Origin: Nitrosomonas mobilis | GTDB lineage: Bacteria; Pseudomonadota; Gammaproteobacteria; Burkholderiales; Nitrosomonadaceae | Assembly (NCBI RefSeq): GCF_900103035.1 | Contig: NZ_FMWO01000092.1 | Location: 1-64,000, forward strand | Reading direction: 5' to 3' | DNA length: 64,000 nt | Shown: in pieces, positions 2,622 through 19,332 of the stretch | How the letters are laid out: every line of letters starts with the position of its first letter | How positions within the stretch are numbered: position 1 is the stretch's first letter | Translations under genes and position numbers: made by a program | The notes under the pieces: model-generated | What the model saw: only the letters and a program-made list of their open reading frames with translations | Told to the model about the DNA's origin: nothing | Database searches by the model: none

Positions 2622-2710
2622 GGTTCTGTCGCATTAAGCGTTTTTTATCCAATTCTCTCATTGATTTCATAGAAGAGAAATTGCCAAGAATTGCTTAATG
2701 CGACAGAGCC
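2622..2710. mobile_element. MITE copy 1 with IS6-type ends (89 bp)
   Basis: An 89-bp non-coding element bounded by inverted repeats: 'GGTTCTGTCGCATTAAGC' on the left and the reverse complement of 'GGCTCTGTCGCATTAAGC' on the right. These ends match the first bases of the IS6-family element at 3389. The interior is AT-rich and contains 'TTGCCAAGAATTGCTTAATG', which recurs inverted in the copy at 15845. I see no 8-bp target duplication. It lies between the unknown membrane-protein gene and parE. Confidence 0.75.
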
Positions 2711-2727: not shown

Positions 2728-3033
2728 TTATAAATGTCTGCCGTGATCCATGCTTTCGTGCAAAATTCGCATAATAAAAATTATTTGACCGATAATACGA
2801 AAAAAAATGACATGTCGCCCTGATTTACGGCCTTTGATAACTTTTGGAACGCCATAACGAGATTTTCCAGTATCTGGATCATTGGCTATGTTTACTATTG
2901 TTTTATAGAGCCCTTCTGTGTACTTAGTGGACTGTTCTTCACCCCATTTTGTGAAAGTATAAGCTGCAATAGCTCCTAAGTCGTCTCGCGCAGGATCGGT
3001 GATAATAAGTTCGTAATTATTGGGTGATGACAT
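2728..3033 (-). CDS. parE: ParE/RelE-superfamily toxin
   Basis: A 101-residue protein of the RelE/ParE fold. It has the N-terminal helix segment 'ELIITDPARDDLGAIAAYT', the 'KWGEEQSTKYTEGLY' helix, a 'YGVPKVIKGRKSGRHVIFF' strand region and a C-terminal 'IIFIMRILHESMDHGRHL' typical of ParE toxins, which in studied members poison DNA gyrase. Its start overlaps the 3' end of the upstream antitoxin gene by 17 bp, the usual translationally coupled arrangement. ParE versus a RelE-type ribonuclease cannot be settled from sequence alone; the C-terminal 'MRILHESMD' and the ParD partner favour ParE. Confidence 0.88.
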   Translation of the reverse strand: MSSPNNYELIITDPARDDLGAIAAYTFTKWGEEQSTKYTEGLYKTIVNIANDPDTGKSRYGVPKVIKGRKSGRHVIFFRIIGQIIFIMRILHESMDHGRHL

Positions 3034-3388: not shown

Positions 3389-4212
3389 GGTTCTGTCGCA
3401 TTAAGAAAACTGACCTAATAGTCTTGTAGACTATTATGATTGAGATAAATGGTTAGATTACATGCTTGATGTGAAAGGAATGCGGTTTCCGCTTGAGATA
3501 ATTCTGGTTTGTGTCCGCTGGTACGCAGCGTACCCGTTAAGTTGCCGGCATCTGGAAGAGATGATGGAAGAGCGTGCTGTTACGGTTGACCATTCTACAG
3601 TGAGCCGTTGGGTGGTCCGGTTTCTACCATTGCTGGAAAAGATTTTCAGAAAGTATAAGCGCCCGGTTGGTGGGAGCTGGCGGATGGACGAGACTTATAT
3701 CAAGGTCAAAGGCGTTTGGAAATACCTCTATCGCGCTGTGGACAGGGATGGTAAAACGATCGACTTTCTATTAACGGCCAAGCGCGATAAGGGCGCGGCT
3801 AAACGCTTTTTTGACAAAGCCATGCAAGCCAGTGACATTCCTGAAAAGATCACGATGGATAAAAATGGCGCGAATAAAGCAGCGATTGATGAGATCAATG
3901 CCAACAGGGAGATATCCATGATGGTTCGTCAGGTAAAATATCTCAATAATATTGTGGAACAAGACCATCGAGCAGTGAAACGAATAACAAAACCAATGCT
4001 CGGATTCAAATCTTTTCAATCAGCTAAAAACATCTTGACTGGCATCGAACTCATGCACATGATTCGCAAAGGTCAGATGATGATGGAGGGAGCGGACAAG
4101 ATGTCTTTTGCTGAGCAATTTTATGCGTTAGCAGAATAAATCCGTCTAGTGACAGAAGCCGGTACATCTGCTCTCTTGAAATATGCATTTTTATAGTTAA
4201 TGCGACAGAACC
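3389..4212 (+). mobile_element. IS6-family insertion sequence, copy A (824 bp, intact)
   Basis: A complete IS6-family element. The left end 'GGTTCTGTCGCATTAAG' and right end 'TTAATGCGACAGAACC' are inverted repeats of about 16 bp enclosing one transposase gene. The same 824-bp length and ends recur at 13566-14389. The flanking 8-mers (AAATTTCA and CGAATCGA) do not match, so no target duplication remains; in IS6 elements this usually means later recombination or replicative cointegrate events. Its ends are shared with four short MITEs in this window. Confidence 0.92.
3462..4139 (+). CDS. IS6-family transposase, intact
   Basis: A 225-residue DDE transposase, within the 220-240 range usual for IS6/IS26 elements. 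It starts with a short helix-turn-helix region ('VSRWVVRFLPLLEKIFRKY'), and the catalytic triad is visible as D76 ('RMDETYIKVKG'), D133 ('TMDKNGANKAA') and E166 ('NIVEQDHRAVKR'). No internal stop is present, so it can probably supply transposase for the fragments and MITEs that share its ends. It differs from the 13566 copy at scattered positions, so the two are not a very recent duplication. Confidence 0.93.
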   Translation: MLDVKGMRFPLEIILVCVRWYAAYPLSCRHLEEMMEERAVTVDHSTVSRWVVRFLPLLEKIFRKYKRPVGGSWRMDETYIKVKGVWKYLYRAVDRDGKTIDFLLTAKRDKGAAKRFFDKAMQASDIPEKITMDKNGANKAAIDEINANREISMMVRQVKYLNNIVEQDHRAVKRITKPMLGFKSFQSAKNILTGIELMHMIRKGQMMMEGADKMSFAEQFYALAE

Positions 4213-4296
4213 CGAATCGAAATGTTCGCAGTCTTTTAAAACAGAATCTCAGACTGAACGCGGTTTTTCAACAGCTTATTAAAGGTGGCGTGTTCC

Positions 4297-7200
4297 ATGC
4301 GTGATATCTTCGTCTGTTATTCAAGGAAAGATCTTGCGATTGCTGATAGATTGATCCAGCACTTGCATGAGGCAGGCTGGACTGTTTTTATCGACAGGCA
4401 AATCCATGTTGGACACCGTTGGCATCATGACATCGAAAAGGAGTTGCATGCTGCTAAAGCTGTTGTGGTGCTATGGTCCGTCAGTTCGCGTGAGAGCGAT
4501 TTCGTACTTGAAGAAGCTGAATATGGAAAACGTAACAATCTTCTGTTTCCTATTTATATTGAGCAAGTAGAGCCACCGTACGGTTTCAGTCGCATTCAGA
4601 CCGCAGATCTGACAGGTTGGAGAAACGGCACTGATAATTCAGGTCTAACAAAGCTCATTGAAGCATTGCGGCAACACCTGAATAAAACCGCATCACCCTT
4701 ACCAATTGGAGAAAACCCTTACAAAGGGTTGGCGGTATTCAAAGAAGAAGATGCAGAACGCTTCTTTGGACGCGATGAAGAAATCGAGAAGTTTCTTCGC
4801 CAATTTCTGAGCCTGACGACACCACTGAATGACCAGACGCCAGTACGCATATTACCTGTTCTCGGTCCTTCAGGTAGCGGCAAATCCTCATTAGTGCAGG
4901 CTGGTCTGCTGCCACGTATTCGTAAAGTAATTGGTGATGCAGAAAATGGCACACTCACTACTCTAGTATTTTCACCGCGCAGCCGCCCACTTCGTCAATT
5001 AACAATAGAACTGGCACGTTTAAGTCTGGAAGGAAAGAACAGAGCAACATGTATCAATGACTACGAGATTCTACTGAAGCAAACGTCAAATGGACGATTT
5101 TGTGGGTTGCTAAACATAGTCGATGCAATAATCTCCGGTGCGCCGGCAGAAGCTAATCAACATTTTTTATTAGTTGTTGATCAATTTGAAGAACTTTATA
5201 CGCTAACAGATCGTTATTCTGATCAGGAATCAATCGATACCGAGTCGGATATCTTTGTAGCCAATCTATTGGAGGCTGCGAGCGACCGGGAAGGCCGAAT
5301 AGCAGTAATTATCACATTGCGTAGTGACTTCTTTGAACAACTCACACACCGGCACAAAACACTGGCTAGTATTTGTGCCGAACAAAAATCACTGGTCGGT
5401 CCGCCGACCGAGAAAGGACTGCGACAGGCTATTTCCGTACCTGCTGCACGCGCTGGTTCACCTTTAAGTGATATTGTCATTGATCAATTAGTAGCACAAA
5501 CACTTGATCGTGATGGTGCGTTGCCACTGCTGCAAGTAACATTGAGCGCCATCTGGGAGGGCATGAAACAGGGCACGCAACCTGAAGAAACACTGCACAA
5601 ACTTGGTGGGGTTGGTGGCGCTTTACATGAACAGGCTGAAAATTTGTTCATGGCGCTGAATGAAACAGAACAAAATCTGGCTCGGCATGCACTACTGGCG
5701 ATGGTGCAGATTGGGGAAAACACACCGGATACACGCAAGCGAATTCAGATCGATGAACTGATTGCTGACAGTGACGACCCGGTTCATCTTGAAAAAGTAT
5801 TGCTCCATTTGGCGGGAACCACCATTAATCCGGCCAGCCATATAACCGAGTTACGCCTGATCACCCTATCAGGTGATGAAGACGGCGTGCGCCACGCCGA
5901 AATCGTGCATGAAGCCCTGTTGCAACGTTGGAACCGTTTACGTGAATGGATTGAATCCAATCGTGACAATCTGCGAATTCGAGAACGAATTCGGGAGCGT
6001 ATGCGGTTGTGGCAAGAAAATAATAATCGCAATGACCGTCTATTGCCACGAGGCAGTGAATTGGAAGATGGTCGCAAATTGCTGCACGTGGCCAAAGATA
6101 TTCCAGTTGCAGATATTAAACCATATATACAGCGCTCACTTGCACACCAGCAACGTAACACACAAGTTCGAGCAGGAATCTTTGTGAGTGTAATTGTTGT
6201 ACTTGCTGCTTTTCTAGGTTGGGCACTCATGTCTGAGCAAGAAGCACAACAGAATTTACTGACGGCTAATTTCAACTCAGCCAAATTTTATGAAGAAAGG
6301 GCGTTGGATGCACTTGCCAAAGCACAGGAAAGTGGCAATAGTGAAAGTTATCGTTCAGCTTGGTTATATGCATCAGAAGCAGCTTTACTCGATATACCGG
6401 TTGATAAACAAGCGCTTTCTAGTGAAACTTTAGGTTCATTGTTGCTGGGAAATTTAACACGTGATGCATTTAACGAATACTGGACATCACCTGTATTATA
6501 TTTTTATCCTAGCTTGCGCAGGATTGCCTATAGCCCGGATGGGCGTTGGCTGGCTGCGGGACAAAGTTCAAAGCTGTATGTGAGCAAAATATCACAACTT
6601 TTACTATGGGAGGTTGCCAGTGGCCGCTTGGTTCATCGAATCGATGCTCACAATGAAAATATTAATGGTTTGGCATTCTCTCCGGACAGCCACAAACTAG
6701 CCTCAGCTTCCAGTGATGGGAGTGTTCGCCTCTGGGGTACAAAACAAGGAGACTTATTACATACACTCGAAGGTGGCACGAATCAATTTTTTGATATCAA
6801 ATTCTATCCAGATAATAAACATCTAGCAGTTGCTTCATCACAAGGAATATCAATTTGGAAACCTGATGCAGAAGTGGCTGATATAACAACACTTAAGTTG
6901 CTAGAGGCAGGTATGTCTGAAAAAATTGAGATAGATTCGTCACAAAAGTGGCTGGCGGCAATAACTGATAACAAGGCACATCTCTATGCAAGAGAAACTG
7001 GCGATGTGACTCACATGCCTCGCGGTGAAAGGGGTGGAGTTAAAATGTTTGACATTGGTTTTGGTCCGCAGGAACATATGCTTGCAACTGCAGAAGGCCC
7101 CAATGTACATATTTGGGACATTGAAACCCGTAAACATTTGCGAACCTTTTCTCATGATCAAGGCATCTATGGTCTGGCATTTAGTCCTGATAAAGGAATT

Positions 7201-10200
7201 ATGGCTACCGGTGGATATAAAGGCGATATAAATTTATGGAATCCTCATAACGGTCAACGACTGGCCACATTGAGCGAACATATTCGAGGTATTAATGATA
7301 TTGCGTTCAGTCCTGATGGTAGTATCCTTGCCTCGGTTTCTAACAATAATGGTTTACGCTTGTGGGATGTAAGATCCAATGCACAAATTCAGCCAGATGA
7401 AGGTCACAGCGATATTATATCCAGCATTGCGGTTAGTCCTAATGGCAGTTTGATTGCTACAGGATCGTACGATAAATCAGTGCGTCTTTGGAGTACAGCT
7501 AAAGGTAAGTTGGTTTCTATTTTTAATAAGCATAAAAGCGCAATTACTCAAATTGACTTTAGCCCGGATAGTAATAGTTTGGCTACTGGTTCTTATGATG
7601 GAACGGTAATACTATGGAATATTGCAAATAATCAGCTGTCGCATGTATTTACGACCCCTGACAACCAGGTTATTTCAAGTATTTCATTTAGCTTGGATGG
7701 TAAAACACTTGCTGCCAGTAGCGGGGAAATGGTTTATATATGGGCTACTAAGAGCGGCAAACTAATGTATAAACTTAAAAGTAATCACGGCGAAATTCAG
7801 ATTGAATACAACGCAGAAAATAATAAGCTTAATGCTGCTAGCATTGAAAACGAAACCGTACATTTCTGGAATGTGACATCAAAAAATCGTATCCAAACGT
7901 TCAAAGGTCATAAAGTTCCAAAAGACTCGGGAACATATTTGGCATTTGATCCAACTGATCAGTTTTTTGCTATAGGAGTTGGCAGCCTGAGTAGAGATTT
8001 CGTGTTATATGTCTGGAATATAGCAAGCGGAAATCTATTACACACATTACCGTTGGATACTATTGATCTTCACGGTTCTTTAAATATCGTATTCAGTCCA
8101 GATGGGCAATGGATTGTACTATCAAATGGATATAGATTATATTTTGTTGAGACTGCTAGTGGCAAGCTTAATCGTATTGTTGATACAAATTGTCCTATAA
8201 CTGCACTAACATTTACAACGGATGGCCTGAGTCTCGCATTAGGATGTTCCGACAAGACAGTACGCTTAATTAATGCTGCATCCGGTGCACCTATACTCGC
8301 ATTTAAAGAACCGCTAACTAGTTTTGTTAGAAAGATTAGCTACAGTTCAGATGGAAAATGGCTAGCATTGGGAGATCAGGGAAAAACTGTAGGTATCTGG
8401 AATATCAGCACTGGTCGTCTTGTTCGAAAACTTCCTGTTCATGGTTATTATGAGGACTTAGCGTTTCATCCCACACAGCCTTGGCTAGCGGTCGGTTCAG
8501 TAACACAAACCATCGGCGTCTGGAATGTTACTAGCGGTGAACTTAAACAACGCTTTATTGGTAATGGTTTCGCTTCTCGGGATAACTGTATTGTCAGTTC
8601 AGATAGTCAGCTTGTAGCAATTCCTACACCGGACAATAAGTCGGTACGGTTGTGGGACATACAAGAGGGTGTGTTACGTCACACCTTGGATCAGGGTGAA
8701 ATTATTAGCTCTGCTTTTAGTCCAGATACTCAAACAATCGCAATTGCTTCTGACGACATGACAGTGCGATTATGGAATGTTAAAAACGGATATCCTGGTT
8801 TAACGATCGCGAATGAGAAAGTTGTTTCTCAGATGGGTTTCAGTCCAGATGGTCGCACGCTGTTAACAATGGATGGAGAAAAAACGGCCCTTTGGGATGT
8901 CGGCACCGGTCATCTGAAACATATACTTAAGCAAGATAACATGCGAGGTATAAGTCAGTTTAGTTTCAGGCCTGACAGTAAACAAGTTGCTGTGTCGACG
9001 GGCGTTAGCCCTGCAACCATGAATTTATGGGACACTGCTTCCGGTAATAAAATAGATTCATTTGAGGCAGGTTTCATTACTGCGTTATCTTTTTTTCCTG
9101 ATTCACCATTATTGGCAATTTTTGACAATGGACCATTACGGATATTGAATACCCAAACAAAAGAATGGATAAAACCGGAAAAGGCACTGAGTGCAATGGC
9201 TTTAAACATATCAAATAAATTGTCAGGTCGCTTTGCTCTGCCAAATTTTAATAAAGGGATCTTGCTTTTTGATGAAAAAGGTAACGCCACATCAAGTGGT
9301 AGTGTAGGTGCACTTAGCACGGGCAATCAAATGTTGGCGAGCAGTGATGATAATAACGATTCTTTACAAATCAGTGACCTAAATACTGACCAGGTCATTC
9401 AGGAAATCAAGACTCAAAACGCCACTCTTAAGTGTCTGGTGTTTACACCTGATGGAGAACAGCTGATTGCTCAATATCTTGGATATTCATTACATTTGTG
9501 GGATATCGAAACAGGGCAGTTACTTAATGACACAATTGAAGCGGGTGGCCACTCCCATACTGCAAGGCCCGAAGATATTGTTTTTAGTCCAGATGGCCGA
9601 TTATTAGCCTCACGAGGCTTGGAAAATAAATCGATTCAGTTGTGGAGTATCCAAGAGGGGGTGATAAAACACCAGCTTATTGGCCACAAAGACAACGTAA
9701 CCAGTCTGGCCTTTAGCCCTAATAACCAACTGCTGGCATCGGGCGGATATGAGTCCATAAAAATATGGAATGTAAAAAATGGAAGGCTTGTTGGCACTTT
9801 ATTGACCGAGAGTAAAGACCCAGTCCGCAGATTGACATTTAATTCCGAAGGCACCATATTGGCCTCGAGTAACGAATTTCAAGAAAGTGAAGTACGTCTG
9901 TGGGATGTACATACACTTTCTCTTCGGCTTGTGATAAAGGACAACAGTTCCCCAGTGTTCAGTCCCAATAATGATTTACTTGCTACTAATACCGAAAAAA
10001 AGGGAGTTAATCTATGGGACACTGGAAATGGCAAGCTCAAGTATAATTTTCCTGATGTTCATATAATGAAAGATAAGACTGAAGGGGTTTTCAGTTCAGA
10101 TGGTAGAATTATCGCAACAAAATATGGCAATTCTATTCTAGCATTATGGGATGTAAAAACCGGTCACAAACTGCATGAACTACAAGGATCGAACCCTTTT

Positions 10201-10557
10201 AGTTTTGCTCCAGATGGACGAACATTTACAGCTGGAATTTTTGAAAATGGACAACTCGACTCTGGCGTGTTTGTTTGGCCACTTGATATGCGTCTTCTGG
10301 ATTTGTTCACGGCTAAGGACAAACAACAGCGCGCCATTCTACACCATATGAAGCAAGGAGTAGAATTATTATGGCAACGTAAGGTGGATGGTTCTAATAT
10401 CATCGAAAGCCCCCGACAGCCAAGGCTATATACGCATAATGACTATTTCTTCGAACATGAAGATCGCATCCGTCCATTGCTAGACCCGCCCAGCTTAGGT
10501 CAGAGCAAGTTTGATCAGGTTTATGAATGGGCTGCTGAGCAGGCAAGATTAAAATAA
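4297..10557 (+). CDS. TIR - nSTAND NTPase - WD40 giant protein
   Basis: About 2,086 residues, starting at ATG 4297 (GGTGG eight bases upstream) or at GTG 4285; residue numbers here count from 4285. An N-terminal TIR domain (about 5-135) has the 'DIFVCYSRKD' first strand, a BB-loop region and 'FVLEEAEYGKRN', which places a candidate NADase glutamate at E76/E77. A linker 'NPYKGLAVFKEEDAERFFGR' type segment (N-P-Y-x-G-L, F-F-G-R) opens an nSTAND1-like NTPase with P-loop 'GPSGSGKSS' (194-202) and Walker B 'LLVVDQFEE' (~295-303). A hydrophobic segment at ~629-650 may span the membrane. From ~750 to ~2020 I count about 30 diverged WD40-type repeats ('SPDG..LA....D..V.LW'), enough for roughly four propellers. 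TIR-STAND proteins commonly act in conflict or defence signalling; the trigger and product here are unknown. Confidence 0.9.
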   Translation: MRDIFVCYSRKDLAIADRLIQHLHEAGWTVFIDRQIHVGHRWHHDIEKELHAAKAVVVLWSVSSRESDFVLEEAEYGKRNNLLFPIYIEQVEPPYGFSRIQTADLTGWRNGTDNSGLTKLIEALRQHLNKTASPLPIGENPYKGLAVFKEEDAERFFGRDEEIEKFLRQFLSLTTPLNDQTPVRILPVLGPSGSGKSSLVQAGLLPRIRKVIGDAENGTLTTLVFSPRSRPLRQLTIELARLSLEGKNRATCINDYEILLKQTSNGRFCGLLNIVDAIISGAPAEANQHFLLVVDQFEELYTLTDRYSDQESIDTESDIFVANLLEAASDREGRIAVIITLRSDFFEQLTHRHKTLASICAEQKSLVGPPTEKGLRQAISVPAARAGSPLSDIVIDQLVAQTLDRDGALPLLQVTLSAIWEGMKQGTQPEETLHKLGGVGGALHEQAENLFMALNETEQNLARHALLAMVQIGENTPDTRKRIQIDELIADSDDPVHLEKVLLHLAGTTINPASHITELRLITLSGDEDGVRHAEIVHEALLQRWNRLREWIESNRDNLRIRERIRERMRLWQENNNRNDRLLPRGSELEDGRKLLHVAKDIPVADIKPYIQRSLAHQQRNTQVRAGIFVSVIVVLAAFLGWALMSEQEAQQNLLTANFNSAKFYEERALDALAKAQESGNSESYRSAWLYASEAALLDIPVDKQALSSETLGSLLLGNLTRDAFNEYWTSPVLYFYPSLRRIAYSPDGRWLAAGQSSKLYVSKISQLLLWEVASGRLVHRIDAHNENINGLAFSPDSHKLASASSDGSVRLWGTKQGDLLHTLEGGTNQFFDIKFYPDNKHLAVASSQGISIWKPDAEVADITTLKLLEAGMSEKIEIDSSQKWLAAITDNKAHLYARETGDVTHMPRGERGGVKMFDIGFGPQEHMLATAEGPNVHIWDIETRKHLRTFSHDQGIYGLAFSPDKGIMATGGYKGDINLWNPHNGQRLATLSEHIRGINDIAFSPDGSILASVSNNNGLRLWDVRSNAQIQPDEGHSDIISSIAVSPNGSLIATGSYDKSVRLWSTAKGKLVSIFNKHKSAITQIDFSPDSNSLATGSYDGTVILWNIANNQLSHVFTTPDNQVISSISFSLDGKTLAASSGEMVYIWATKSGKLMYKLKSNHGEIQIEYNAENNKLNAASIENETVHFWNVTSKNRIQTFKGHKVPKDSGTYLAFDPTDQFFAIGVGSLSRDFVLYVWNIASGNLLHTLPLDTIDLHGSLNIVFSPDGQWIVLSNGYRLYFVETASGKLNRIVDTNCPITALTFTTDGLSLALGCSDKTVRLINAASGAPILAFKEPLTSFVRKISYSSDGKWLALGDQGKTVGIWNISTGRLVRKLPVHGYYEDLAFHPTQPWLAVGSVTQTIGVWNVTSGELKQRFIGNGFASRDNCIVSSDSQLVAIPTPDNKSVRLWDIQEGVLRHTLDQGEIISSAFSPDTQTIAIASDDMTVRLWNVKNGYPGLTIANEKVVSQMGFSPDGRTLLTMDGEKTALWDVGTGHLKHILKQDNMRGISQFSFRPDSKQVAVSTGVSPATMNLWDTASGNKIDSFEAGFITALSFFPDSPLLAIFDNGPLRILNTQTKEWIKPEKALSAMALNISNKLSGRFALPNFNKGILLFDEKGNATSSGSVGALSTGNQMLASSDDNNDSLQISDLNTDQVIQEIKTQNATLKCLVFTPDGEQLIAQYLGYSLHLWDIETGQLLNDTIEAGGHSHTARPEDIVFSPDGRLLASRGLENKSIQLWSIQEGVIKHQLIGHKDNVTSLAFSPNNQLLASGGYESIKIWNVKNGRLVGTLLTESKDPVRRLTFNSEGTILASSNEFQESEVRLWDVHTLSLRLVIKDNSSPVFSPNNDLLATNTEKKGVNLWDTGNGKLKYNFPDVHIMKDKTEGVFSSDGRIIATKYGNSILALWDVKTGHKLHELQGSNPFSFAPDGRTFTAGIFENGQLDSGVFVWPLDMRLLDLFTAKDKQQRAILHHMKQGVELLWQRKVDGSNIIESPRQPRLYTHNDYFFEHEDRIRPLLDPPSLGQSKFDQVYEWAAEQARLK

Positions 10558-10897
10558 TAAGCCCTGTTATTTGGTTCTGTCGCATTATCAGAAAAAACAT
10601 GCGGCTTGATCGATTTATTCGGCATTTCCGAGAAAATAATCGCACTTGAAGAACAACAATAATCTGCAAAAAAGACCTGGTAAAAAAGCAAAAAAAGTCC
10701 TATTAACCCTCATCAAATATATATATTGAAAAGCTATCTCTGTTGCAAAAAATAAAAAAACAGCTATATTACATTTTTCATCTAACTCTTTTTCAACATC
10801 TTTTAAATTTATTTTTTATCGAAAATAAATTTTTTCAATAGCGCCTGAACCAGTACTTTTAAATCTCAGCAAAGGGGATTCTACTCGACCATAAAAA
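10558..10897. other. AT-rich 340-bp gap with two stray IS termini
   Basis: No gene is supported. At 10573-10587 there are 15 bases identical to the type-1 IS6 end, and at 10738-10754 there are 17 bases identical to the end of the second IS6 type found at 12909. Neither has a partner end nearby. The rest is very AT-rich and includes the hairpin at 10805-10832. It probably carries the promoter of the downstream protease gene. Confidence 0.6.
10805..10832. repeat. AT-rich inverted repeat before the protease gene
   Basis: Perfect 11-bp arms (AAATTTATTTT and AAAATAAATTT) separated by 6 bases and followed by a T-run. It could be a weak terminator for the long TIR-STAND transcript, or an operator for the protease gene 66 bp further on. 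Symmetry is all that supports either reading. Confidence 0.4.
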
Positions 10898-12466
10898 ATG
10901 AAATTTAAAGACTTGTTAAACGTTACTTTATTGAACAATAGACGGGCCATTTATTTAATAGGTATGGTAGTTTTACTCCTCACCATTCTTATGCTTTCAT
11001 CCTGCTTTCCAAAAAAAACTTCCTTGCCCCTTTCGCTTGAGGAACAATTAGAACAGCTCGAAAGAATACAATCTCAATATGAGGATGATATCTTAGACAT
11101 CCCTGGAGTGCTAGGCATCGGCATCGGCCGATCTGAGAACGGCCTCCACTTCAGCGTCTTTATTGATAAATCTGAACCGGCTCCCGCACTACCGAAGATA
11201 ATCGGCGGCATTCCTGTCTGGGTGCTGCTCAGAGACCCAATCCAGCTTTTAGACGGATTCCCGCCCTGCGGAGCTGCGGGAACTGCTGAATGTCACGCTG
11301 ACCGACAGCCCTTGCCTGTGGAGATGGGGAATTCTGGAGGGTGGAATAGTTCTTCAGCACCAATAGCTTGCAGTCTTGGGTTCAAGGCTTGCGATCTCGG
11401 CACTCAGAAAATAGTGTTTGTAACTAATTCACACTGCAACCAGTCTATAACAACCTGCGAGATGGCGCCAATGGGTAGTACTTGGGTACACCCTGGTCTA
11501 GGGGACGTAAACTCAGGTTCATGTATAACCGATGGCTTATGCGATGTGATCGGTAAAGTTTCAGGGCATGCACCGCTATCATGTAATTCGAACAGCAACT
11601 TGGCAGACGCGACTAAAATAGAGAGTTCTTCAGAGCAAACCTTTTTTATATTTCGCGACATTGGCTTTTCCGGCGGGGAAGGTTCTCCAATGATTGGAGA
11701 CCCTGTGCGTAAAAGTGGCCGCACAACTGGTGACACTCGCGGAACGATTGTGCATATGAATGTGTCCAGGAAGTATGCTACTGGTTGCTGCGACGACATC
11801 ACGATGAAGGGTTTAATTGAGTGGGTAACTACTGACGGAACAGTAATGAGGGGTGGTGACTCAGGCTCTGCGCTTCTAAGCGATAGGCCGGCCCAGGGGG
11901 GTGGGAATGTGCCTTTTTATAACATTGTGGGTCTGAACTTTGCAGTCGCCGAATCTACTGACAATAACGATGGCAACACACTACATAACTATGCAAATCA
12001 TATAAAACACGTGTTGGCAGCCCTCAATCTCTCCTTGGATGTCTCGAGCTGTTTACAGGATTGTTTATTTACGTCAATGGCTAATACTTTGTCCGATCCA
12101 GAAATAGCTGTTTCTCTGGGCCATAAGTTTCGCGAACAGGTTCTGGAGAAGTCTTCTCGGGGTCAGCAATATAAAAACATCTATTACCAAATCACGGATG
12201 AAGCTGTACGCATTGCTGCCACCAACCCAAAACTTCTTTTACGCACAGCCAAAGTTTTTCAAAGCCAGAGACCATTGTTCAATGCCATGTTGGAAGGCTT
12301 GTCTGTGGAAATTAATCACGCCGATCTTGAAGTAATAGATGATCTGCTCAAGAGATATCAGAAGTATGGTAGTCCCCATTTGCAAATAGCCTTAGATGTT
12401 CTTCGAAAAGACCTTTATGATGATAAAGTATTAGCTGAATTTAATGTAAAAATTGAATACTATTAG
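10898..12466 (+). CDS. Trypsin-like serine peptidase, predicted lipoprotein
   Basis: A 522-residue protein with an N-terminal hydrophobic segment (about 17-33) ending in a lipobox-like 'LSSC' with Cys36, which suggests export and lipid anchoring. A 'IPGVLGIGIGRSENG' strand motif follows. The chymotrypsin-fold triad can be traced as H179 ('VTNSHCNQ'), D237 ('LADATKIE') and S322 ('RGGDSGSALLS'); the last is the classic G-D-S-G motif. Many cysteines between 80 and 260 fit disulfides in the periplasm. The last ~150 residues are helical and not recognised. It lies 340 bp after the TIR-STAND gene on the same strand and ends just before an IS6 fragment. Activity and any link to the TIR protein are inferred. 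Confidence 0.75.
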   Translation: MKFKDLLNVTLLNNRRAIYLIGMVVLLLTILMLSSCFPKKTSLPLSLEEQLEQLERIQSQYEDDILDIPGVLGIGIGRSENGLHFSVFIDKSEPAPALPKIIGGIPVWVLLRDPIQLLDGFPPCGAAGTAECHADRQPLPVEMGNSGGWNSSSAPIACSLGFKACDLGTQKIVFVTNSHCNQSITTCEMAPMGSTWVHPGLGDVNSGSCITDGLCDVIGKVSGHAPLSCNSNSNLADATKIESSSEQTFFIFRDIGFSGGEGSPMIGDPVRKSGRTTGDTRGTIVHMNVSRKYATGCCDDITMKGLIEWVTTDGTVMRGGDSGSALLSDRPAQGGGNVPFYNIVGLNFAVAESTDNNDGNTLHNYANHIKHVLAALNLSLDVSSCLQDCLFTSMANTLSDPEIAVSLGHKFREQVLEKSSRGQQYKNIYYQITDEAVRIAATNPKLLLRTAKVFQSQRPLFNAMLEGLSVEINHADLEVIDDLLKRYQKYGSPHLQIALDVLRKDLYDDKVLAEFNVKIEYY

Positions 12467-12483
12467 CCGATAATGGGGGCAAG

Positions 12484-12906
12484 GGTTCTGTCGCATTAAC
12501 GAAAGAAAGCTGATATCTGGTTAATTTTATCAAGTGTACAATTGGTCTTGACGCGATTATCTTGCCAACGCATAAAATTGCTCAGCAAAAGACATCTTGT
12601 CCGCTCCCTCCATAATCATCTGACCTTTGCGAATCATGTGCGCTAGTTCGATGCCAGCTAAGATGTTTTTAGCTGATTGAAACGATTTGAATCCAAGCAT
12701 TGGTTTTGTTATTCGTTTCACTGCTCGATGGTCTTGTTCCACGATATTGTTGAGGTATTTGACCTGCCTAACGACAATGGAAGTATCATTATTCTTGATG
12801 ATCTCATCAATCGCCGCTTTATTGGTGCCACTCTTATCCATCGTGACTTTTTCAGGAATGTCATTGTCTTGCACGGCTTTGTCAAAAAAGCGTTTAGCCT
12901 CCGCCT
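12484..12906 (-). mobile_element. IS6 fragment, copy B (3' half, inverted)
   Basis: The right end of the same IS6 element as copies A and D, in reverse orientation: its terminal repeat 'GGTTCTGTCGCATTAACG' starts at 12484 and matches the reversed end at 14389. It encodes the transposase C-terminus from about 'AKRFFDKAV' through the D and E catalytic motifs ('TMDKSGTNKAA', 'NIVEQDHRAVKR') to the stop at 12557. It is cut at 12906, exactly where a second IS6 type begins. The N-terminal half is not found on the far side, so the copy is dead. Confidence 0.88.
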
Positions 12907-13457
12907 GGCTCTGTTGCAAAAAATATCTTTGGCCAGGGATAAGTATCTGATATATTGGATTACGCTGTGTAAGTATAGAATTGTCTTTCAATAAGACGAA
13001 TTTCTCCTACAAGACCTTGTCCGCGTGCCCATGCATTCATTTGTCCTTTCTTAAACATGCGCATGATTTCAAACCCCTTGATCGTTGCATAGGCAGTCTC
13101 TAAGGATTTAAATCCACGTACAGGATTTATCAAGCGTTTGAGTTTGCCGTGATCGGCTTCGACAATATTGTTCAGATATTCCACCTGCCGGTTTACCGTA
13201 TATTTTAGGCATTTTTCTTCCATTTTCAGTTCCTCAATGACGGAACCAAAAGCTAGCGCTTTGTCTGTATTGATCGTCATTGGATGTGCTCATGGTTTTA
13301 TGGACTTGAGCGCTTTGCTGAGGAACCGCTTAGCCACCTTAGCACTGCGTGTAGACGACAAATAAAACTTAATTGTGTGACCGCACTTGTCGACAATCCT
13401 GAATAAATACGTCCATTTTCCTTTAACTTTTACATAAGTCTCATCTACTCGCCAGAG
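12907..13457 (-). mobile_element. Second IS6-type element, 3' remnant with broken transposase
   Basis: It begins at the terminus 'GGCTCTGTTGCAAAAAATAT', close to the ends of the IS26/IS15 branch and unlike the 'GGTTCTGTCGCATTAA' ends of the other copies. On the minus strand the transposase can be read from 'WRVDETYVKVKGKWTYL' (first catalytic Asp) to 'NNIVEADHGKLKRLI' (catalytic Glu) and its stop at 12960. A TGA at 13290-13292 interrupts the frame where the family has Trp ('LKSIKP-stop-AHPMTINTDKA'). The 5' end, including the helix-turn-helix and left terminus, is gone. Confidence 0.82.
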
Positions 13458-13565
13458 TTATTGTCAAAATCAGGGTTCCTTGCATTGATCTAGCCGAACC
13501 AATCTAGGCCAACGATCATGTATCCAGGCATATTCTGGCGATGTGCTGACTGTTACCACATAAAC
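13458..13565. other. 108-bp unassigned stretch between two IS6 copies
   Basis: This lies between the truncated second-type IS6 remnant and the left end of copy D. No open frame, terminal repeat or hairpin is evident. It does not contain the missing half of copy B. Confidence 0.4.
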
Positions 13566-14389
13566 GGTTCTGTCGCATTAAGAAAACTGACCTCATAGTC
13601 TTGTAGACTATTATGATTGAGATAAATGGATAGATTACATGCTTGATGTGAAAGGAATGCGGTTTCCGCTTGAGATAATTCTGGTTTGTGTGCGCTGGTA
13701 CGCAGCGTACCCGTTAAGTTGCCGGCACCTGGAATAAATGATGGAGGAGCGTGGTGTATCTGTGGATCATTCAACAGTGAGCCGTTGGGCGATCCGATTT
13801 TTACCATTACTGGAAAAGATTTTCAGAAAGTACAAGCGCCCGGTTGGTGGAAGCTGGCGAATGGACGAGACTTATATCAAGGTCAAAGGCGTTTGGAAAT
13901 ACTTCTACCGCGCTGTGGACAGGGATGGTAAAACGATCGACTTTCTATTAACGGCCAAACGCGATAAGGCCGCTGCCAAACGCTTCTTTGACAAAGCCAT
14001 GCAAGCCAATGGCGTTCCTGAAAAGGTCACGATGGATAAGAGTGGCGCCAATAAAGCAGCGATTGATGAGATCAATGCTAGCAGGGACATACCCATGGTG
14101 GTTCGTCAGGTCAAATATCTCAATAATATTGTGGAACAAGACCATCGGGCAGTGAAACGAATAACAAAGCCAATGCTCGGGTTCAAATCTTTTCAGTCAG
14201 CTAAAAGTATCTTGGCTGGCATAGAATTAATGCATATGATTCGCAAAGGACAGATGATGATGGAAGAAACTGACGAGATGTCTTTTGCTGAACAATTTTA
14301 TGCTCTAGCAAGATAATTACGTCAAGACCAACTGTACACTCGATAAAATCAAGAAAATATCAGCTTTCTTTCGTTAATGCGACAGAACC
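13566..14389 (+). mobile_element. IS6-family insertion sequence, copy D (824 bp)
   Basis: Same length, same ends and same orientation as copy A at 3389. The left repeat 'GGTTCTGTCGCATTAAG' starts at 13566 and the right repeat ends at 14389. The flanking 8-mers (ACATAAAC, GGACACTA) do not match. With copy A it forms direct repeats around the TIR-STAND-WD40 and protease genes. Its transposase has a nonsense codon (see the pseudogene). Confidence 0.92.
13639..14316 (+). pseudogene. IS6-family transposase with nonsense codon 33
   Basis: Colinear with the 225-codon transposase at 3462, but codon 33 is TAA at 13735-13737 where copy A has GAG (Glu), a two-base change. The catalytic residues downstream are unchanged ('RMDETYIKVKG', 'TMDKSGANKAA', 'NIVEQDHRAVKR'). 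An ATG follows the stop immediately, at 13738, so a 192-residue product lacking the first 33 residues of the N-terminal region could still be made by re-initiation. Without that region DNA binding is doubtful, so I treat it as broken. Confidence 0.8.
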
Positions 14390-14448
14390 GGACACTACCG
14401 CCCTACCCTTTTTATCCCTCAAAACACCCATAAAACTGTTCCGTTTTG

Positions 14449-14518
14449 TTGTCTCATAAATCAATGTCCCTTAAACTCATTGAGTGCGCTAATAAATAAG
14501 ACAATTATCAAATAAGAC
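14449..14518. promoter_or_regulatory. Possible resolvase res site
   Basis: The stretch holds TGTC/GACA-type half-sites: 'TTGTCTCAT' at 14449, its near-inverted partner 'ATAAGACAA' at 14496, and a further 'AATAAGAC' at 14511. Serine resolvases of Tn3-type elements bind such half-sites arranged as two or three dyads. The resolvase gene itself lies about 660 bp downstream, behind the toxin-antitoxin pair. The spacing does not fit a textbook res site exactly, so this is tentative. Confidence 0.3.
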
Positions 14519-14537
14519 TTGCATTACCCATTTAAAA

Positions 14538-14557
14538 CATATACAGTAATGTATATG
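14538..14557 (+). promoter_or_regulatory. Likely RHH antitoxin operator/promoter
   Basis: A perfect inverted repeat, CATATACA - GTAA - TGTATATG, sits 12 bp before the antitoxin ATG at 14570. It overlaps a possible -10 (TACAGT) set 17 bp from a TTGCAT -35 at 14519. An autoregulatory operator over the promoter is typical of RHH antitoxin operons. Its presence also argues against the longer reading frame starting at 14519. Confidence 0.6.
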
Positions 14558-14569
14558 AAACAAGATTCT

Positions 14570-14809
14570 ATGGTGCGCACACAGGTCTATCTATCCAAGG
14601 AACAAGAGCAAGCTCTCAAGTCCCTTGCCCTCACCTCTGGAACTCGCCAAAGCGAGCTTATTCGTGAGGCGGTTGATTTATTGCTTTCAGAAAAAAACGC
14701 ATTGCAAGGCCAGTGGAAGCAAGCCTTGCATGACATGAAAGGCATGTGGTCGGATGATGAAGACGCTGAGCAGCGTATGCAAACCATTCGCCAGGAGTTT
14801 GATCGTTAG
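14570..14809 (+). CDS. Ribbon-helix-helix antitoxin of a PIN-toxin pair
   Basis: A 79-residue protein starting 'MVRTQVYLSKEQEQALKSLA', a typical RHH β-strand (R-T-Q-V-Y-L) plus helix, followed by 'GTRQSELIREAVDLLL'. It would bind operator DNA as a dimer and neutralise the PIN toxin with its acidic tail ('MWSDDEDAEQRM'). The ATG at 14570 is chosen because the upstream candidates (14519, 14549, 14555) fall in or before the likely operator. The toxin gene starts 2 bp after its stop. The symbol is left blank because several RHH families pair with VapC. Confidence 0.85.
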   Translation: MVRTQVYLSKEQEQALKSLALTSGTRQSELIREAVDLLLSEKNALQGQWKQALHDMKGMWSDDEDAEQRMQTIRQEFDR

Positions 14810-14811
14810 GA

Positions 14812-15186
14812 ATGGCACATTACCTTATAGATACCTGCATCTTAATTGATTTCTTCCGTGGCAATGAAAAGGCTGCGCAGTTTTTGGAAGGATTGGAGAC
14901 CCCTCCTTTCCTGTCAGCCCTCACCGTTGCTGAACTATATGCAGGTGTTCGAGAAGGCAAGGAACGCACCTTGCTTGATAATCTGGTGCAGCATTTTCCT
15001 GTGATCCCTTTAAATGATGAAGCAGCTATTAAAGGCGGCCTATATCGGCGGCAGTATGGAAAAAGTCATGGTGTTGGAATTGTTGACGCGCTACTTGCTT
15101 CTTCTGCTGAATGCAAAAACCTTGTCCTTGCCACATGTAATGTGAAACATTTTCCCATGATGGAGAGTGTGTATTGTCCTTATTAA
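14812..15186 (+). CDS. vapC: VapC-like PIN-domain toxin
   Basis: A 124-residue PIN-domain ribonuclease of the VapC type, expected to cleave RNA with Mg2+. Acidic residues fitting the active site are D7 ('YLIDTCILIDFF'), E41 ('TVAELYAGV') and D92 ('GIVDALLAS'), with 'LATCNVKHF' near the C-terminus as in VapC proteins. It is coupled to the RHH antitoxin gene (2-bp gap), and its 3' end overlaps the resolvase gene by 13 bp, so the three genes probably form one transcript. Confidence 0.9.
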   Translation: MAHYLIDTCILIDFFRGNEKAAQFLEGLETPPFLSALTVAELYAGVREGKERTLLDNLVQHFPVIPLNDEAAIKGGLYRRQYGKSHGVGIVDALLASSAECKNLVLATCNVKHFPMMESVYCPY

Positions 15187-15827
15187 GAAAAGAAGAAACA
15201 GGCGCACTCTACGGTTATGCGCGAGTCAGTACAGGCGATCAGGACTTGGCCTTGCAACTTGATGCCTTAAAAAATGAAGGTTGTAATAATAAGAATATCT
15301 TTACCGATAAAATTTCTGGCGCAACATCTCAGCGCGTTGGCCTTGATGCCTGCCTATTCCAATTAAAAAAAGGAGATACCCTTCTCGTCTGGAGACTGGA
15401 CCGGCTTGGTCGTTCTATGCCTCATTTGGTAAGCCTCGTTGAAGAATTGCGACAGCGTGGTATTGGGTTTCGTTCTATCTGTGACGGTGCTATTGATACC
15501 ACCACAGCAAGTGGTGAGCTGGTATTCAATATTTTCTCATCCCTTGCCCAGTTTGAGCGGCGGCTTATTCAGGAGCGCACACGCGCAGGGCTTGAAGCTG
15601 CCAGAGCCAGAGGAAGAACAGGTGGCCGCAAGCCATTAGACCCTAATAATCCTCGTGTAAAAATGGCCAAAACTTTGCATGAAGATAAAGGACTGGATGT
15701 GAAAGAAATCTGCAAACAGATGCAGATTTCACGCAGTACGTTCTATATCTATAGATTGGTACATGTAAAGGATGCTGCGAAGATTATAGTGGACCCCTCC
15801 GTCAAGACAATAATGCATCGAGTTTAA
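15174..15827 (+). CDS. Serine resolvase/invertase with altered C-terminus
   Basis: A 217-residue small serine recombinase. The catalytic serine is S19 in 'GYARVSTGDQDLALQLDAL', and the conserved arginines appear in 'VWRLDRLGRSMPHLVSLVEEL' (shown split: VWRLDRLGRS...). The long helix 'LAQFERRLIQERTRAGLEAA' and a C-terminal helix-turn-helix ('VKEICKQMQISRSTFYIY') follow. It uses TTG at 15174, inside vapC. The last ~13 residues are encoded by a 50-bp IS3-type end at 15789, so the original tail has been replaced. Placement next to a toxin-antitoxin pair resembles resolvase genes of Tn3-family transposons, but no tnpA is seen. Confidence 0.88.
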   Translation: MSLLRKEETGALYGYARVSTGDQDLALQLDALKNEGCNNKNIFTDKISGATSQRVGLDACLFQLKKGDTLLVWRLDRLGRSMPHLVSLVEELRQRGIGFRSICDGAIDTTTASGELVFNIFSSLAQFERRLIQERTRAGLEAARARGRTGGRKPLDPNNPRVKMAKTLHEDKGLDVKEICKQMQISRSTFYIYRLVHVKDAAKIIVDPSVKTIMHRV

Positions 15828-15838
15828 GAGGGTAACCT
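15789..15838. mobile_element. IS3-type terminal fragment
   Basis: Fifty bases starting GTGGACCC match 44 of 50 positions of 22348-22397, the 3' end of the degenerate IS3-family remnant. Only the terminus is present here. It lies across the 3' end of the resolvase gene and supplies its stop codon. Confidence 0.7.
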
Positions 15839-15844
15839 TCTTCA

Positions 15845-15933
15845 GGCTCTGTCGCATTAAGCAATTCTTGGCAATTTTCCTTCAATGCAATCAATGAGGG
15901 ATTTTGACAAAAAACGCATAATGCGACAGAGCC
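15845..15933. mobile_element. MITE copy 2 with IS6-type ends (89 bp)
   Basis: An 89-bp element with ends 'GGCTCTGTCGCATTAAGC' and 'ATGCGACAGAGCC'. Read in reverse it closely matches copy 1 at 2622, including the internal 'TTGCCAAGAATTGCTTAATG' and 'CTCATTGATT' stretches, so the two belong to one family. No coding capacity. It follows the IS3 fragment by 6 bp and no target duplication is evident. Confidence 0.78.
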
Positions 15934-15959
15934 CTTAATTCTCTAGGACGCCTTGCTAC

Positions 15960-16136
15960 TCACCGCTCAGGCACCTTGCTTATTTCGACTTCGATGGCTT
16001 GTCAACTGGAGTAATGGAAGGCACTAATAACAAAATCCAATCGTTGCATAAAATGGCTTATGGCTTCAGAGATATCGAATTTTTTAAACTGAAAATTATA
16101 ACGCCACATGAAACTAAATATGTGTTGGTCGGTTGA
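15960..16136 (+). pseudogene. ISL3-family transposase, C-terminal remnant
   Basis: About 52 codons of a transposase tail: 'YFDFDGLSTGVMEGTNNKI' then 'MAYGFRDIEFFKLKI', the hallmark E-G-x-N-N-K-I and A-Y-G-(F/Y)-R-D motifs of ISL3-family (IS204/IS1001) transposases. The N-terminal ~350 residues are missing; the fragment starts just after MITE copy 2 and ends in a natural-looking stop. Confidence 0.78.
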
Positions 16137-16190
16137 ACACAGAAGCACGCACTTTCCGGATGAACCAAAAAATTAATATTTTATAGCTCA

Positions 16191-16208
16191 TGGTTATCAT
16201 GATAACCA
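16191..16208. repeat. 18-bp perfect palindrome
   Basis: TGGTTATCA followed directly by TGATAACCA, with no spacer. It lies 55 bp after the ISL3 remnant. It could be a protein-binding site left from a lost gene; no adjacent intact gene explains it. Confidence 0.4.
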
Positions 16209-16345
16209 GTTATAGTTATACCTCATTTTTATATGCTCTCCACATAACATTGTCTGACCCTTTGTGCAATACCACACTGCTGACCATGGCGCCAACCAGC
16301 CGTCATAGCCTGATGGACCCCATGCCCTCCGCTGTTGCAGTGAAG

Positions 16346-16471
16346 TCAACTCCTGACGTTTAATGCAGCCGTCTTCTGAAAATGACGCTTTCCGACGCGC
16401 TCGGAAATCTCACGTTGTGTAAAGCGGCTTCGTGCCTGCTTCAGAAGTTCAAGTGATTGGGCGTGACTCAT
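16346..16471 (-). pseudogene. Decayed HTH-like gene start (41 codons)
   Basis: An ATG at 16471 has a good ribosome site (GAGGACAAA just before it) and begins 'MSHAQSLELLKQARSRF' followed by 'TQREISERVGKR', which resembles the start of a helix-turn-helix. The frame then loses sense and stops after 41 codons. I read it as the remnant of a DNA-binding protein; the family is not recognised. Confidence 0.35.
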
Positions 16472-16603
16472 TTTGTCCTCACTGAGTATATTTACGGACG
16501 TTATGACCTATGTTATTCCCTATTTCCAGGAATATTTGTGATCGGTGTGTCAGCTTGAGCTATACCCTAACCTGATTACAGCTGCGGAGGGCATTGGGAC
16601 CAT

Positions 16604-16627
16604 CAGTTACTGATATATCAGTAACTG
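16604..16627. promoter_or_regulatory. 24-bp perfect palindrome, likely HigA-type operator
   Basis: CAGTTACTGATA followed by its exact reverse complement, 100 bp upstream of the toxin-antitoxin operon at 16727. A palindrome of this length is a good candidate binding site for the dimeric HTH antitoxin encoded second in that operon. No -10/-35 pair is obvious between it and the gene. Confidence 0.5.
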
Positions 16628-16726
16628 CCGAGAAATACTCGATAGTTCGCCGTTCTAATCCATAATCGCTACGCAAGGGTATTAATACTGCATCAAGGAT
16701 AGATTTTTCTTGTTGAATAGAAGTCA

Positions 16727-17098
16727 ATGACGTACAATAAAGCGATGAAAGTGAGGCCCATTACCGTTGTCGAGCTTCCCTCATTCCTGAATCTGTCCAG
16801 GCTGGTCTGGACTGACGGCGAACGGGCAGAATTAATTGATTATGTCGCACGGAATCCGGAAAGTGGAGATCTCATACCCGGAACGGGTGGTGTTCGAAAA
16901 CTGCGATGGAGCAGAGCGGGTATTGGTAAACGTGGTGGTGCACGTGTGGTTTATTTTTATTGCCATGCTGACGCCCCGATTTATATGTTGCTGGCCTATG
17001 CCAAGGCCGTAAGCACAGACTTGACCCTGGATCAGAAGCAACAGGTGAGAAAGTTGACCGTACTGCTGAAAGAACGGCATAGTGTAAAAGGAGATTGA
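16727..17098 (+). CDS. HigB/RelE-like toxin
   Basis: A 123-residue toxin of the RelE superfamily, HigB2/COG4737-like. Typical segments are 'ERAELIDYVARNPESGDLI', 'GTGGVRKLRWSRAGIGKRGG' and 'ARVVYFYCHADAPIYMLLAY' ahead of a Lys-rich tail. Such toxins are ribosome-dependent or free mRNA interferases. The toxin gene precedes the antitoxin gene (1-bp gap), the order characteristic of HigBA-type modules. An internal ATG at 16745 is a possible alternative start. Confidence 0.85.
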   Translation: MTYNKAMKVRPITVVELPSFLNLSRLVWTDGERAELIDYVARNPESGDLIPGTGGVRKLRWSRAGIGKRGGARVVYFYCHADAPIYMLLAYAKAVSTDLTLDQKQQVRKLTVLLKERHSVKGD

Positions 17099-17099
17099 A

Positions 17100-17390: not shown

Positions 17391-17566
17391 AAGGCATCCA
17401 TCCTGTAGATCAGGAGATTAAGCTTGAACAAAAAAAAGCAAAGGAAAAAGTGACTCAGAAATGCATGCTTACTGGTGCAATAATATTGGATTACATTGAG
17501 AATAAAGGCGAGTTTTCAGAGCAGATTCTTAATATCCTGGGTCCACGTCTCGAATCAGAAAGCTAG
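17390..17566 (+). pseudogene. Unidentified 59-codon frame fragment
   Basis: An open frame directly after the antitoxin stop reads 'GIHPVDQEIKLEQKKAKEK' then 'MLTGAIILDYIENKGEFSEQ' and ends at 17566. It has no suitable start near its beginning (first ATG at 17465). The Lys/Glu-rich helix plus short hydrophobic stretch faintly recalls tails of small mobilisation proteins, but I would not assign it. It may be a fragment of a lost plasmid or element gene. Confidence 0.3.
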
Positions 17567-17648
17567 AAAGAACTACTTGGGATTAAAGCGCAGCCGGAAA
17601 CAAGCGATGCCAGTACGATAGAATCATAAAGAATCTGAATACCCCCGG

Positions 17649-18190: not shown

Positions 18191-18195
18191 GCCTG

Positions 18196-19325: not shown

Positions 19326-19332
19326 TCAGAAA

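What the first reader, a model, noticed from the sequence alone, without database searches (positions are those of the whole stretch)
4297..10557. TIR-nSTAND-WD40 protein with about 30 WD40 repeats
One gene joins a TIR domain with a candidate NADase glutamate (E76/E77), an nSTAND1-like NTPase with intact P-loop and Walker B, a possible membrane segment and roughly 30 WD40-type units (my count by eye), enough for four propellers. TIR and STAND parts are known in bacterial conflict systems, where a sensor triggers TIR NAD+ cleavage. The very long, diverged repeat sensor and its place in a mobile unit make this a candidate defence gene. The diverged repeats argue for an old sensor rather than recent repeat expansion.
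Basis: partly seen in the sequence, partly recalled or inferred. Interest (0 to 1): 0.72.

Follow-up and report, generated by a model that had tools for sequence, protein, structure and literature searches.

The report
Probable membrane TIR–STAND–WD40 receptor
A gene from a Nitrosomonas-type bacterium encodes a giant protein that looks like a single-pass membrane alarm, with a propeller-rich sensor probably outside the cell membrane and an NAD-cutting TIR trigger inside; the parts are known, but the way they are combined and swapped is unusual.

Summary
Window 4297–10557 encodes 2086 aa: TIR (TIR_2, 4e-22), nSTAND1 NTPase (3e-95), a strongly hydrophobic helix (residues 627–645) and about 30 diverged WD40 units. 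The modelled first propeller is seven-bladed; "four propellers" is not shown.

A helix at this place recurs in 100 of 105 scored homologs; in the four tested for it, DNA-binding domains precede it and an extracellular solute-binding domain follows. The WD40 sensor is therefore probably periplasmic, TIR and NTPase cytosolic. (2) Swapping. The same body carries a trypsin-like domain instead of TIR in P0005; 16 close TIR relatives (59–68%) in the genus are fused to FGE-type sensors, one within a complete-looking diversity-generating retroelement. (3) The sensor diverges fastest: 42% to P0003, against 64% (NTPase) and 91% (TIR).

The gene is accessory (2 of 85 genus genomes) and hemmed by IS6-type ends. 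Best reading: a membrane STAND receptor that detects an envelope or phage cue outside and fires a TIR NADase inside. Activity, localisation and phage phenotype are untested. New variant of a known kind.

The parts
4297..10557 (+). TIR–nSTAND1–TM–WD40 gene, 2086 aa from ATG (an in-frame GTG at 4285 overlaps the ribosome-binding sequence)
   Evidence: start shared with ortholog P0003
4306..4656 (+). TIR domain, residues 4–120
4513..4515 (+). candidate catalytic glutamate E73 (E77 from GTG)
   Evidence: invariant in 13 aligned TIRs; profile alignment puts it on the E of SARM1 'WVHKE'
4717..6033 (+). nSTAND1 NTPase, residues 141–579
   Evidence: Pfam PF20703 2.6e-95
4864..4890 (+). Walker A GPSGSGKSS, residues 190–198
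5167..5193 (+). Walker B region LLVVDQFEE, residues 291–299
   Evidence: D295, E298, E299 invariant; letters
6175..6231 (+). predicted transmembrane helix, residues 627–645
   Evidence: KD 2.51; K+R 4 before, 1 after, counted on the 99% twin P0002; continuous helix 608–664 in the model
6499..10281 (+). about 30 WD40 units, about residues 735–1995
   Evidence: many WD40-type Pfam models
6469..7377 (+). first propeller, about residues 725–1027, units 1–7
8191..8247 (+). Cys1299 and Cys1317, the only cysteines of the WD40 region kept in all four proteins aligned; possible disulfide
10282..10554 (+). conserved C-terminal tail, marker of this body
   Evidence: 60, 63 and 53% to P0003, P0004, P0005; 2 of 85 genus genomes
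3389..4212 (+). IS6/IS240-type element (transposase 3462–4139) ending 84 bp before the ATG
   Evidence: Pfam DDE_Tnp_IS240 4.2e-43; end motif
10573..10587 (+). isolated IS6-type end-like sequence GGTTCTGTCGCATTA, 15 bp after the stop codon
12484..12906 (-). remnant of the same IS6-type element
   Evidence: 88% to the first copy over 343 bp
13566..14389 (+). second IS6-type copy
   Evidence: 91% over 761 bp; DDE_Tnp_IS240
10898..12466 (+). neighbouring trypsin-type protein, 522 aa, lipobox by eye; link to the receptor not shown
   Evidence: H179, D254, S322 among the invariant columns of 13 aligned rows; in 0 of 84 other genus genomes

Best explanation
It is a single-pass membrane receptor of the STAND class. 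The N-terminal TIR and the nSTAND1 NTPase lie in the cytoplasm, a helix at residues 627–645 crosses the inner membrane, and about 30 WD40 blades hang in the periplasm as the sensor. A ligand or damage signal at the envelope, most likely phage-related, would cluster or re-order the propellers. The NTPase would then exchange nucleotide and oligomerise, and the TIRs would be brought together to cleave NAD+, halting or killing the infected cell. Shown by sequence or model: domains, motifs, the hydrophobic helix, fold matches, accessory distribution and effector swapping. Inferred: sensor outside, NTPase switching, NADase activity, phage defence.
For: TIR; catalytic glutamate position. The best Foldseek match to residues 1–665 is the plant TIR-NLR RPP1 (7crc_B, E 1.6e-9, loose: TM 0.23); the chain sequence of 7crb/7crc/7dfv is named an NADase in the PDB. 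NTPase motifs. Topology: 100 of 105 scored homologs have a helix with KD of at least 1.6, and 87 of those 100 have more K+R before than after it. In the 4 homologs tested (P0067, P0068, P0099, P0110), Trans_reg_C and BTAD precede nSTAND1 (3 also a kinase) and SBP_bac_1 or Bmp follow the helix. One conserved Cys pair in a WD40 region with four cysteines. Planctomycete kinases with WD40 tails are likewise predicted periplasmic (PMC11032199, abstract and passages). Effector modularity: P0005 has the same body (63% in nSTAND, 53% in tail) with Trypsin_2 in place of TIR. Sensor faster than NTPase faster than TIR. Accessory: 2 of 85, between IS6-type ends.
Confidence: 0.5

Rival explanations
1. It is a cytosolic, APAF1/NLR-like sensor: the hydrophobic helix is a peripheral or buried anchor, and the WD40 blades fold back on the NTPase in the cytoplasm until a phage protein binds them.
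Against: KD 2.51 over 19 residues in a continuous modelled helix 608–664; solute-binding domains occupy the same place in four relatives; the helix is kept in 100 of 105 scored homologs.
Confidence: 0.25
2. It is a membrane signalling receptor for a non-phage cue (envelope stress, nutrient, kin contact); TIR makes a signal or limits growth rather than killing.
For: nSTAND1–TM relatives carry kinase and transcription-factor domains at the N-terminus and solute-binding domains at the C-terminus, which look like regulation, not immunity.
Against: TIR and trypsin-like domains swap on one body; patchy, IS-bound distribution; fast sensor divergence; TIR cousins sit on receptors of a diversity-generating retroelement.
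Confidence: 0.2
3. The gene is a decaying passenger of IS6-rich DNA with no present function.
For: IS6-type ends lie 84 bp before and 15 bp after the gene; in G006 the ortholog's TIR is split by a Mutator-family transposase gene.
Against: A 6.3-kb frame is open with motifs intact, and the unit register is kept at mean 31–42% identity.
Confidence: 0.05

Closest known systems
nSTAND1–WD40 proteins and STAND conflict systems (nSTAND1 named in PMC8195603; passages)
   Same: NTPase family, WD40 tail, varied N-terminal effectors including TIR; 14 of 120 homolog N-termini match my TIR profile, an undercount since P0029 and P0036 bear PF13676 but were not hit; Caballeronia plasmid pNK84 has a TIR-annotated nSTAND1–WD40 protein of 1447 aa
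   Different: Thirty units here; the 11 profile-matching homologs outside this body's own group are 1147–1481 aa long. I did not find the outward sensor or the shared TIR cassette described for them.
DGR-diversified nSTAND1/TIR antigen sensors (PMC10907252; passages)
   Same: TIR, nSTAND1, TM, sensor at the C-terminus; that paper already predicts a periplasmic sensor for some targets; the TIR of one target in G033 is 66% identical to ours
   Different: Sensor is WD40, not FGE/CLec; no RT in this genome
Plant TIR-NLRs (RPP1, ROQ1)
   Same: TIR then STAND NTPase; best structural match
   Different: LRR sensor, cytosolic (recalled); here WD40 and a membrane helix
APAF1 and TEP1/NWD1 (TIR-like DUF4062–NACHT–WD40; PMC13174449 passages)
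   Same: effector–NTPase–WD40 order
   Different: 'transmembrane' does not occur in that paper's main text; different NTPase clade and effector
Animal Toll-like receptors (PMC7075850 passages)
   Same: repeat sensor, single TM and cytosolic TIR, if our topology is right
   Different: opposite chain order, LRR sensor, no NTPase
Planctomycete membrane kinases with periplasmic WD40 tails (PMC11032199, abstract and passages)
   Same: cytosolic effector, mostly one TM, WD40 mostly predicted periplasmic
   Different: kinase, not TIR–STAND; arrays up to 19 WD40 units in the species described

Membership tests
TIR NADase effectors | TIR fold | tested here: met
TIR NADase effectors | catalytic glutamate in sequence | tested here: met
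   E73 aligns with the E of SARM1 WVHKE and is invariant in 13 rows
TIR NADase effectors | formed NADase pocket | tested here: inconclusive
   model block around E73 has pLDDT 63; coordinates not inspected
TIR NADase effectors | NAD+ cleavage | not testable with these tools
   needs a biochemical assay
STAND NTPases, nSTAND1 clade | nSTAND1 profile with Walker A and B | tested here: met
STAND NTPases, nSTAND1 clade | ligand-driven oligomerisation | not testable with these tools
   needs purified protein
WD40 propeller proteins | tandem WD40 units closing as propellers | tested here: met
   about 30 units; first propeller matches seven-bladed structures; number of propellers open
Thoeris type III ThcB4 | NCBIfam NF058526 above its cut-off | tested here: not met
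   22.6 bits against 220
Known antiviral STAND (Avs) systems | match to a PADLOC Avs model | tested here: inconclusive
   only HEAT-ARM_XIII and SAVED_TIR matched at E 0.001; the library dates from 2023
Toll-like receptor layout | sensor outside, one TM, TIR inside | tested here: inconclusive
   predicted only
DGR-diversified receptors | reverse transcriptase in the genome | tested here: not met
   no RVT_1 in G000 (99.85% complete); control rings in 3 of 14 genomes
DGR-diversified receptors | FGE/CLec variable domain in the protein | tested here: not met
   the C-terminus is WD40; the only hit of a DGR target's FGE part in the window is another gene at 37874–38587

The most novel reading that the evidence does not exclude
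A bacterial Toll/NLR hybrid: a one-chain membrane receptor whose giant WD40 sensor surveys the periplasm for phage adsorption or DNA injection and, through a STAND switch, fires a cytosolic TIR NADase before or as the genome enters. In this genus its TIR belongs to a shared effector cassette that is plugged onto two kinds of sensor: one changing by WD40 divergence, the other mutated on purpose by a retroelement.
Probability: 0.3. Interest if true: 0.8.

Novelty: new variant of a known kind. Interest (0 to 1): 0.5.

Why it matters
STAND defence proteins studied at the bench are, as I recall, treated as cytosolic sensors. If this body faces outward, bacteria have a STAND receptor that senses outside the membrane and answers with a TIR inside, close to the logic of animal Toll receptors with an NLR switch in the middle. 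PMC10907252 already suggests periplasmic sensing for some DGR targets (passages), so the idea is not wholly new; here it would come with a giant WD40 sensor and a matched set of relatives. The same body with two effectors (TIR, trypsin-like), and one TIR clade on two sensors (WD40, FGE), would let chimeras in laboratory strains show which part sets specificity and which the outcome.

Tried and rejected
Considered and rejected or left open. (1) A functional pair with the downstream trypsin-type gene: attractive because P0005 carries a trypsin-like effector, but the neighbour occurs in 0 of 84 other genus genomes, G006 included, and the surroundings of its 49 other homologs were not examined; left unlinked. 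(2) A composite IS6 transposon: two IS6-type copies, a remnant and a lone end surround the gene, but no target duplication or empty site was tested. (3) Recent repeat expansion: rejected, units are 21% alike on average. (4) DGR diversification of this protein: rejected, no RT in the genome. (5) TIR exchange between P0003's line and this gene: TIR 91% against nSTAND 64%, while P0004 is nearer in nSTAND (68%) but not in TIR (80%). This suggests recombination at the TIR boundary; stronger constraint on TIR could contribute, and P0003's DNA was not held. (6) Where the trypsin/TIR swap falls on the tree: the four-member clade is firm (100/100), its inside is not (83/81 and 82/30). (7) An IS-borne promoter for the gene: the scan found 3 promoter-like sites against 2.2 expected, no evidence.

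Led nowhere: two genome-contig scans found no relative; megablast on plasmids found none; phmmer of the single TIR on the PDB found none at 0.001, so a profile was used. A search with the C-terminal 127 residues found only P0002–P0004 (112 candidates), so it did not bring further effector-swapped bodies. VIA-align lists cannot exclude families that are not listed.

Limits of counts: one search scored only the 7997 candidates sharing most words and listed 120 of 836 hits; all homolog statistics are on those 120. Searches saw part of the TIR places, as stated in the full report.

Full report
OBSERVATION. The frame at 4297–10557 is open and encodes 2086 residues from the ATG. An in-frame GTG lies 12 bases upstream but overlaps the ribosome-binding sequence (AAGGTGG), and the 68%-identical P0003 (identity over residues 1–760) starts at the same place. 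Pfam finds TIR_2 (4.3e-22) and TIR (5.8e-5) in residues 1–135 and nSTAND1 (2.6e-95) next to it. Sixty Pfam families, most of the 25 shown being WD40-type, match the whole protein; the WD40 model itself stretches. By motif scan and by eye I place 30 WD40 units 36–49 residues apart; six lack the tryptophan.

HOST. The window is part of a 95,350-bp contig of a 3.08-Mb genome in 112 contigs.

MEMBRANE HELIX AND TOPOLOGY. Residues 627–645 have mean hydropathy 2.51 inside a continuous modelled helix 608–664. K+R in the 20 residues before and after are 4/1 in P0002 (99% twin of our protein), 7/2 in P0003, 6/1 in P0004, 5/4 in P0005. Of the 120 homologs listed, 105 had both motifs needed for scoring (15 dropped). 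Of these, 100 have a 19-mer of KD 1.6 or more after the NTPase; K+R is higher before it in 87, equal in 4, lower in 9 (P0006, P0010, P0012–P0015, P0017, P0024, P0094). Seven of the 9 are among the nearest outside relatives (P0006–P0019), where the bias therefore fails. Stronger is domain content. P0067, P0068, P0099 and P0110, chosen because one search lists solute-binding domains for them, have Trans_reg_C and BTAD before nSTAND1 (three also a kinase), and SBP_bac_1 or Bmp after the helix (helix positions). A DNA-binding part must be inside and a solute-binding protein works outside, so in these the chain runs in-to-out. A Streptomyces plasmid homolog is annotated 'transporter substrate-binding domain-containing protein'. 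Our WD40 region has four cysteines; only C1299 and C1317 are kept in all four proteins aligned. By motif position they lie at the start of strand A and the end of strand B of one unit, where a disulfide is plausible (inferred). A published survey predicts WD40 tails of planctomycete membrane kinases mostly in the periplasm (PMC11032199, abstract and passages), and the DGR paper predicts some nucleotide-binding sensors to face the periplasm (PMC10907252, passages); an outward sensor is not new in itself.

SENSOR. The WD40 model of residues 666–1865 (five rows) is weak (pLDDT 68.5, pTM 0.41). Its first propeller, residues about 725–1027, matches single propellers at 1.8–2.3 Å, among them two titled seven-bladed (7big, 7bie); 2ymu and Apaf-1 align over a longer range but loosely (7.1 and 10.3 Å). 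Thirty units would allow, for example, two propellers of seven and two of eight; this is arithmetic, not a result. Against P0003, P0004 and P0005 the units keep register with mean same-position identity of 42, 40 and 31%, against 21% between units within the protein. The array is therefore old and stable in length.

RELATIVES AND SWAPPING. Identity to P0003 is TIR 91%, nSTAND 64%, WD40 42%, tail 60%; to P0004 TIR 80% over 61 residues, nSTAND 68%, WD40 40%, tail 63%; to P0005 nSTAND 63%, WD40 31%, tail 53%. P0005 has Trypsin_2 (3.5e-9) where the others have TIR, and the four form a clade of 100/100 support in an nSTAND tree of 18 rows. In 85 genus genomes, the host included, the tail occurs in 2, an nSTAND at 1e-30 or better in 15, of which only G006 besides the host exceeds 34% identity, and TIRs at 1e-10 or better in 20. 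One search lists 27 places outside the host. I read 19 of them (21 locus entries, two duplicates). In 16 the TIR, 59–68% identical, is followed by an FGE-type domain, complete or cut short, by eye; the other three (L061, L062, L069) have more distant TIRs (37–44%). The 8 not read are broken, short or more distant matches and the G006 pieces. Pfam confirmed TIR_2 plus FGE-sulfatase in 9 of the 9 submitted. In G033 (L036) a TIR–nSTAND1–FGE protein, a template repeat, a reverse transcriptase (RVT_1 9.3e-21) and a TIR–FGE protein with a TIR 66% identical to ours stand together. Mismatches between variable and template repeats fall on template adenines in 16 of 20 and 14 of 17 cases. Parts of related RTs lie next to two more TIR–FGE genes (L028/L034, L055) out of 23 locus entries searched, many with only about 1.5 kb of flank. 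Among 12 TIR–FGE proteins scored, 3 have a helix of KD 2.0 or more between TIR and FGE; the TIR–nSTAND1–FGE protein has one too. DGR-diversified TIR/STAND sensors are in print for multicellular bacteria, and Nitrosomonas is named there among organisms with several DGRs (PMC10907252, passages). Our host genome has no RVT_1 match.

CONTEXT. IS6/IS240-type transposase genes lie at 3462–4139 and 13738–14316, a remnant at about 12484–12906 and a lone end-like sequence at 10573. G+C of the seven 1-kb bins from 4001 to 11000 is 0.37–0.47, against 0.49 for bases 24,001–64,000. In G006 the ortholog's TIR is divided around codons 67–73 by a Mutator-family transposase gene (Transposase_mut 1.9e-102); some 4 kb away are a separate TIR gene and, directly after it, an nSTAND1–WD40 gene. 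I describe it only.

MECHANISM. Shown: domains, motifs, folds at model level, the helix, effector swapping, accessory distribution. Inferred: outward WD40 (my probability about 0.7), NADase activity (0.75), STAND-type switching (0.8), use against phage (0.55). With a membrane between sensor and NTPase, direct APAF1-like folding back is not possible; the signal would have to pass by clustering or rearrangement in the membrane plane.

NOVELTY. Full-text searches of the held open-licence library listed no paper that I could recognise as describing a TIR–nSTAND1–TM–WD40 protein with an outward sensor. I read passages of seven papers, none in full, and most subscription papers are not held. TIR–nSTAND1–WD40 itself is an ordinary combination in databases (at least 14 of 120 homolog N-termini match the TIR profile; Caballeronia plasmid pNK84). 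Hence a new variant of a known kind.

Noticed in passing
L036 (G033:C41) 10913–16997: A complete-looking diversity-generating retroelement in a genus relative with two targets (TIR–nSTAND1–FGE and TIR–FGE), template repeat 13909–14028 and RT 14610–15785; mismatches fall mostly on template adenines.
   Followed up: partly
window 10898–12466: Trypsin-type protein with a lipobox by eye and no Pfam match at 0.001; three of its homologs list PF00089; H179, D254, S322 and several cysteines invariant in 13 aligned rows; absent from the other 84 genus genomes.
   Followed up: partly
window 2622–2710 and 15845–15933: Two short (about 90 bp) MITE-like elements with IS6-type ends, about 88% alike, in opposite orientation.
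   Followed up: no
window 2728–3033, 14812–15186, 15174–15827, 16727–17098: ParE-type toxin, PIN domain, serine resolvase and a RelE match just under its cut-off cluster around the gene; the Caballeronia pNK84 TIR-annotated nSTAND1–WD40 gene also sits beside a ParDE pair.
   Followed up: no
L033 (G006) 14134–19379: A separate TIR gene (with a DUF4062 match below its cut-off) followed at once by an nSTAND1–WD40 gene, some 4 kb from the split ortholog: the same parts on two genes.
   Followed up: no
L033 (G006) 8633–10116: The ortholog's TIR is divided by a Mutator-family transposase gene near the catalytic glutamate.
   Followed up: partly
window 37283–39400: A 705-aa protein with an FGE-like stretch; by eye its ends look like DinB and a methyltransferase, as in ovothiol/ergothioneine synthesis enzymes (recalled); unrelated to the receptor.
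   Followed up: no
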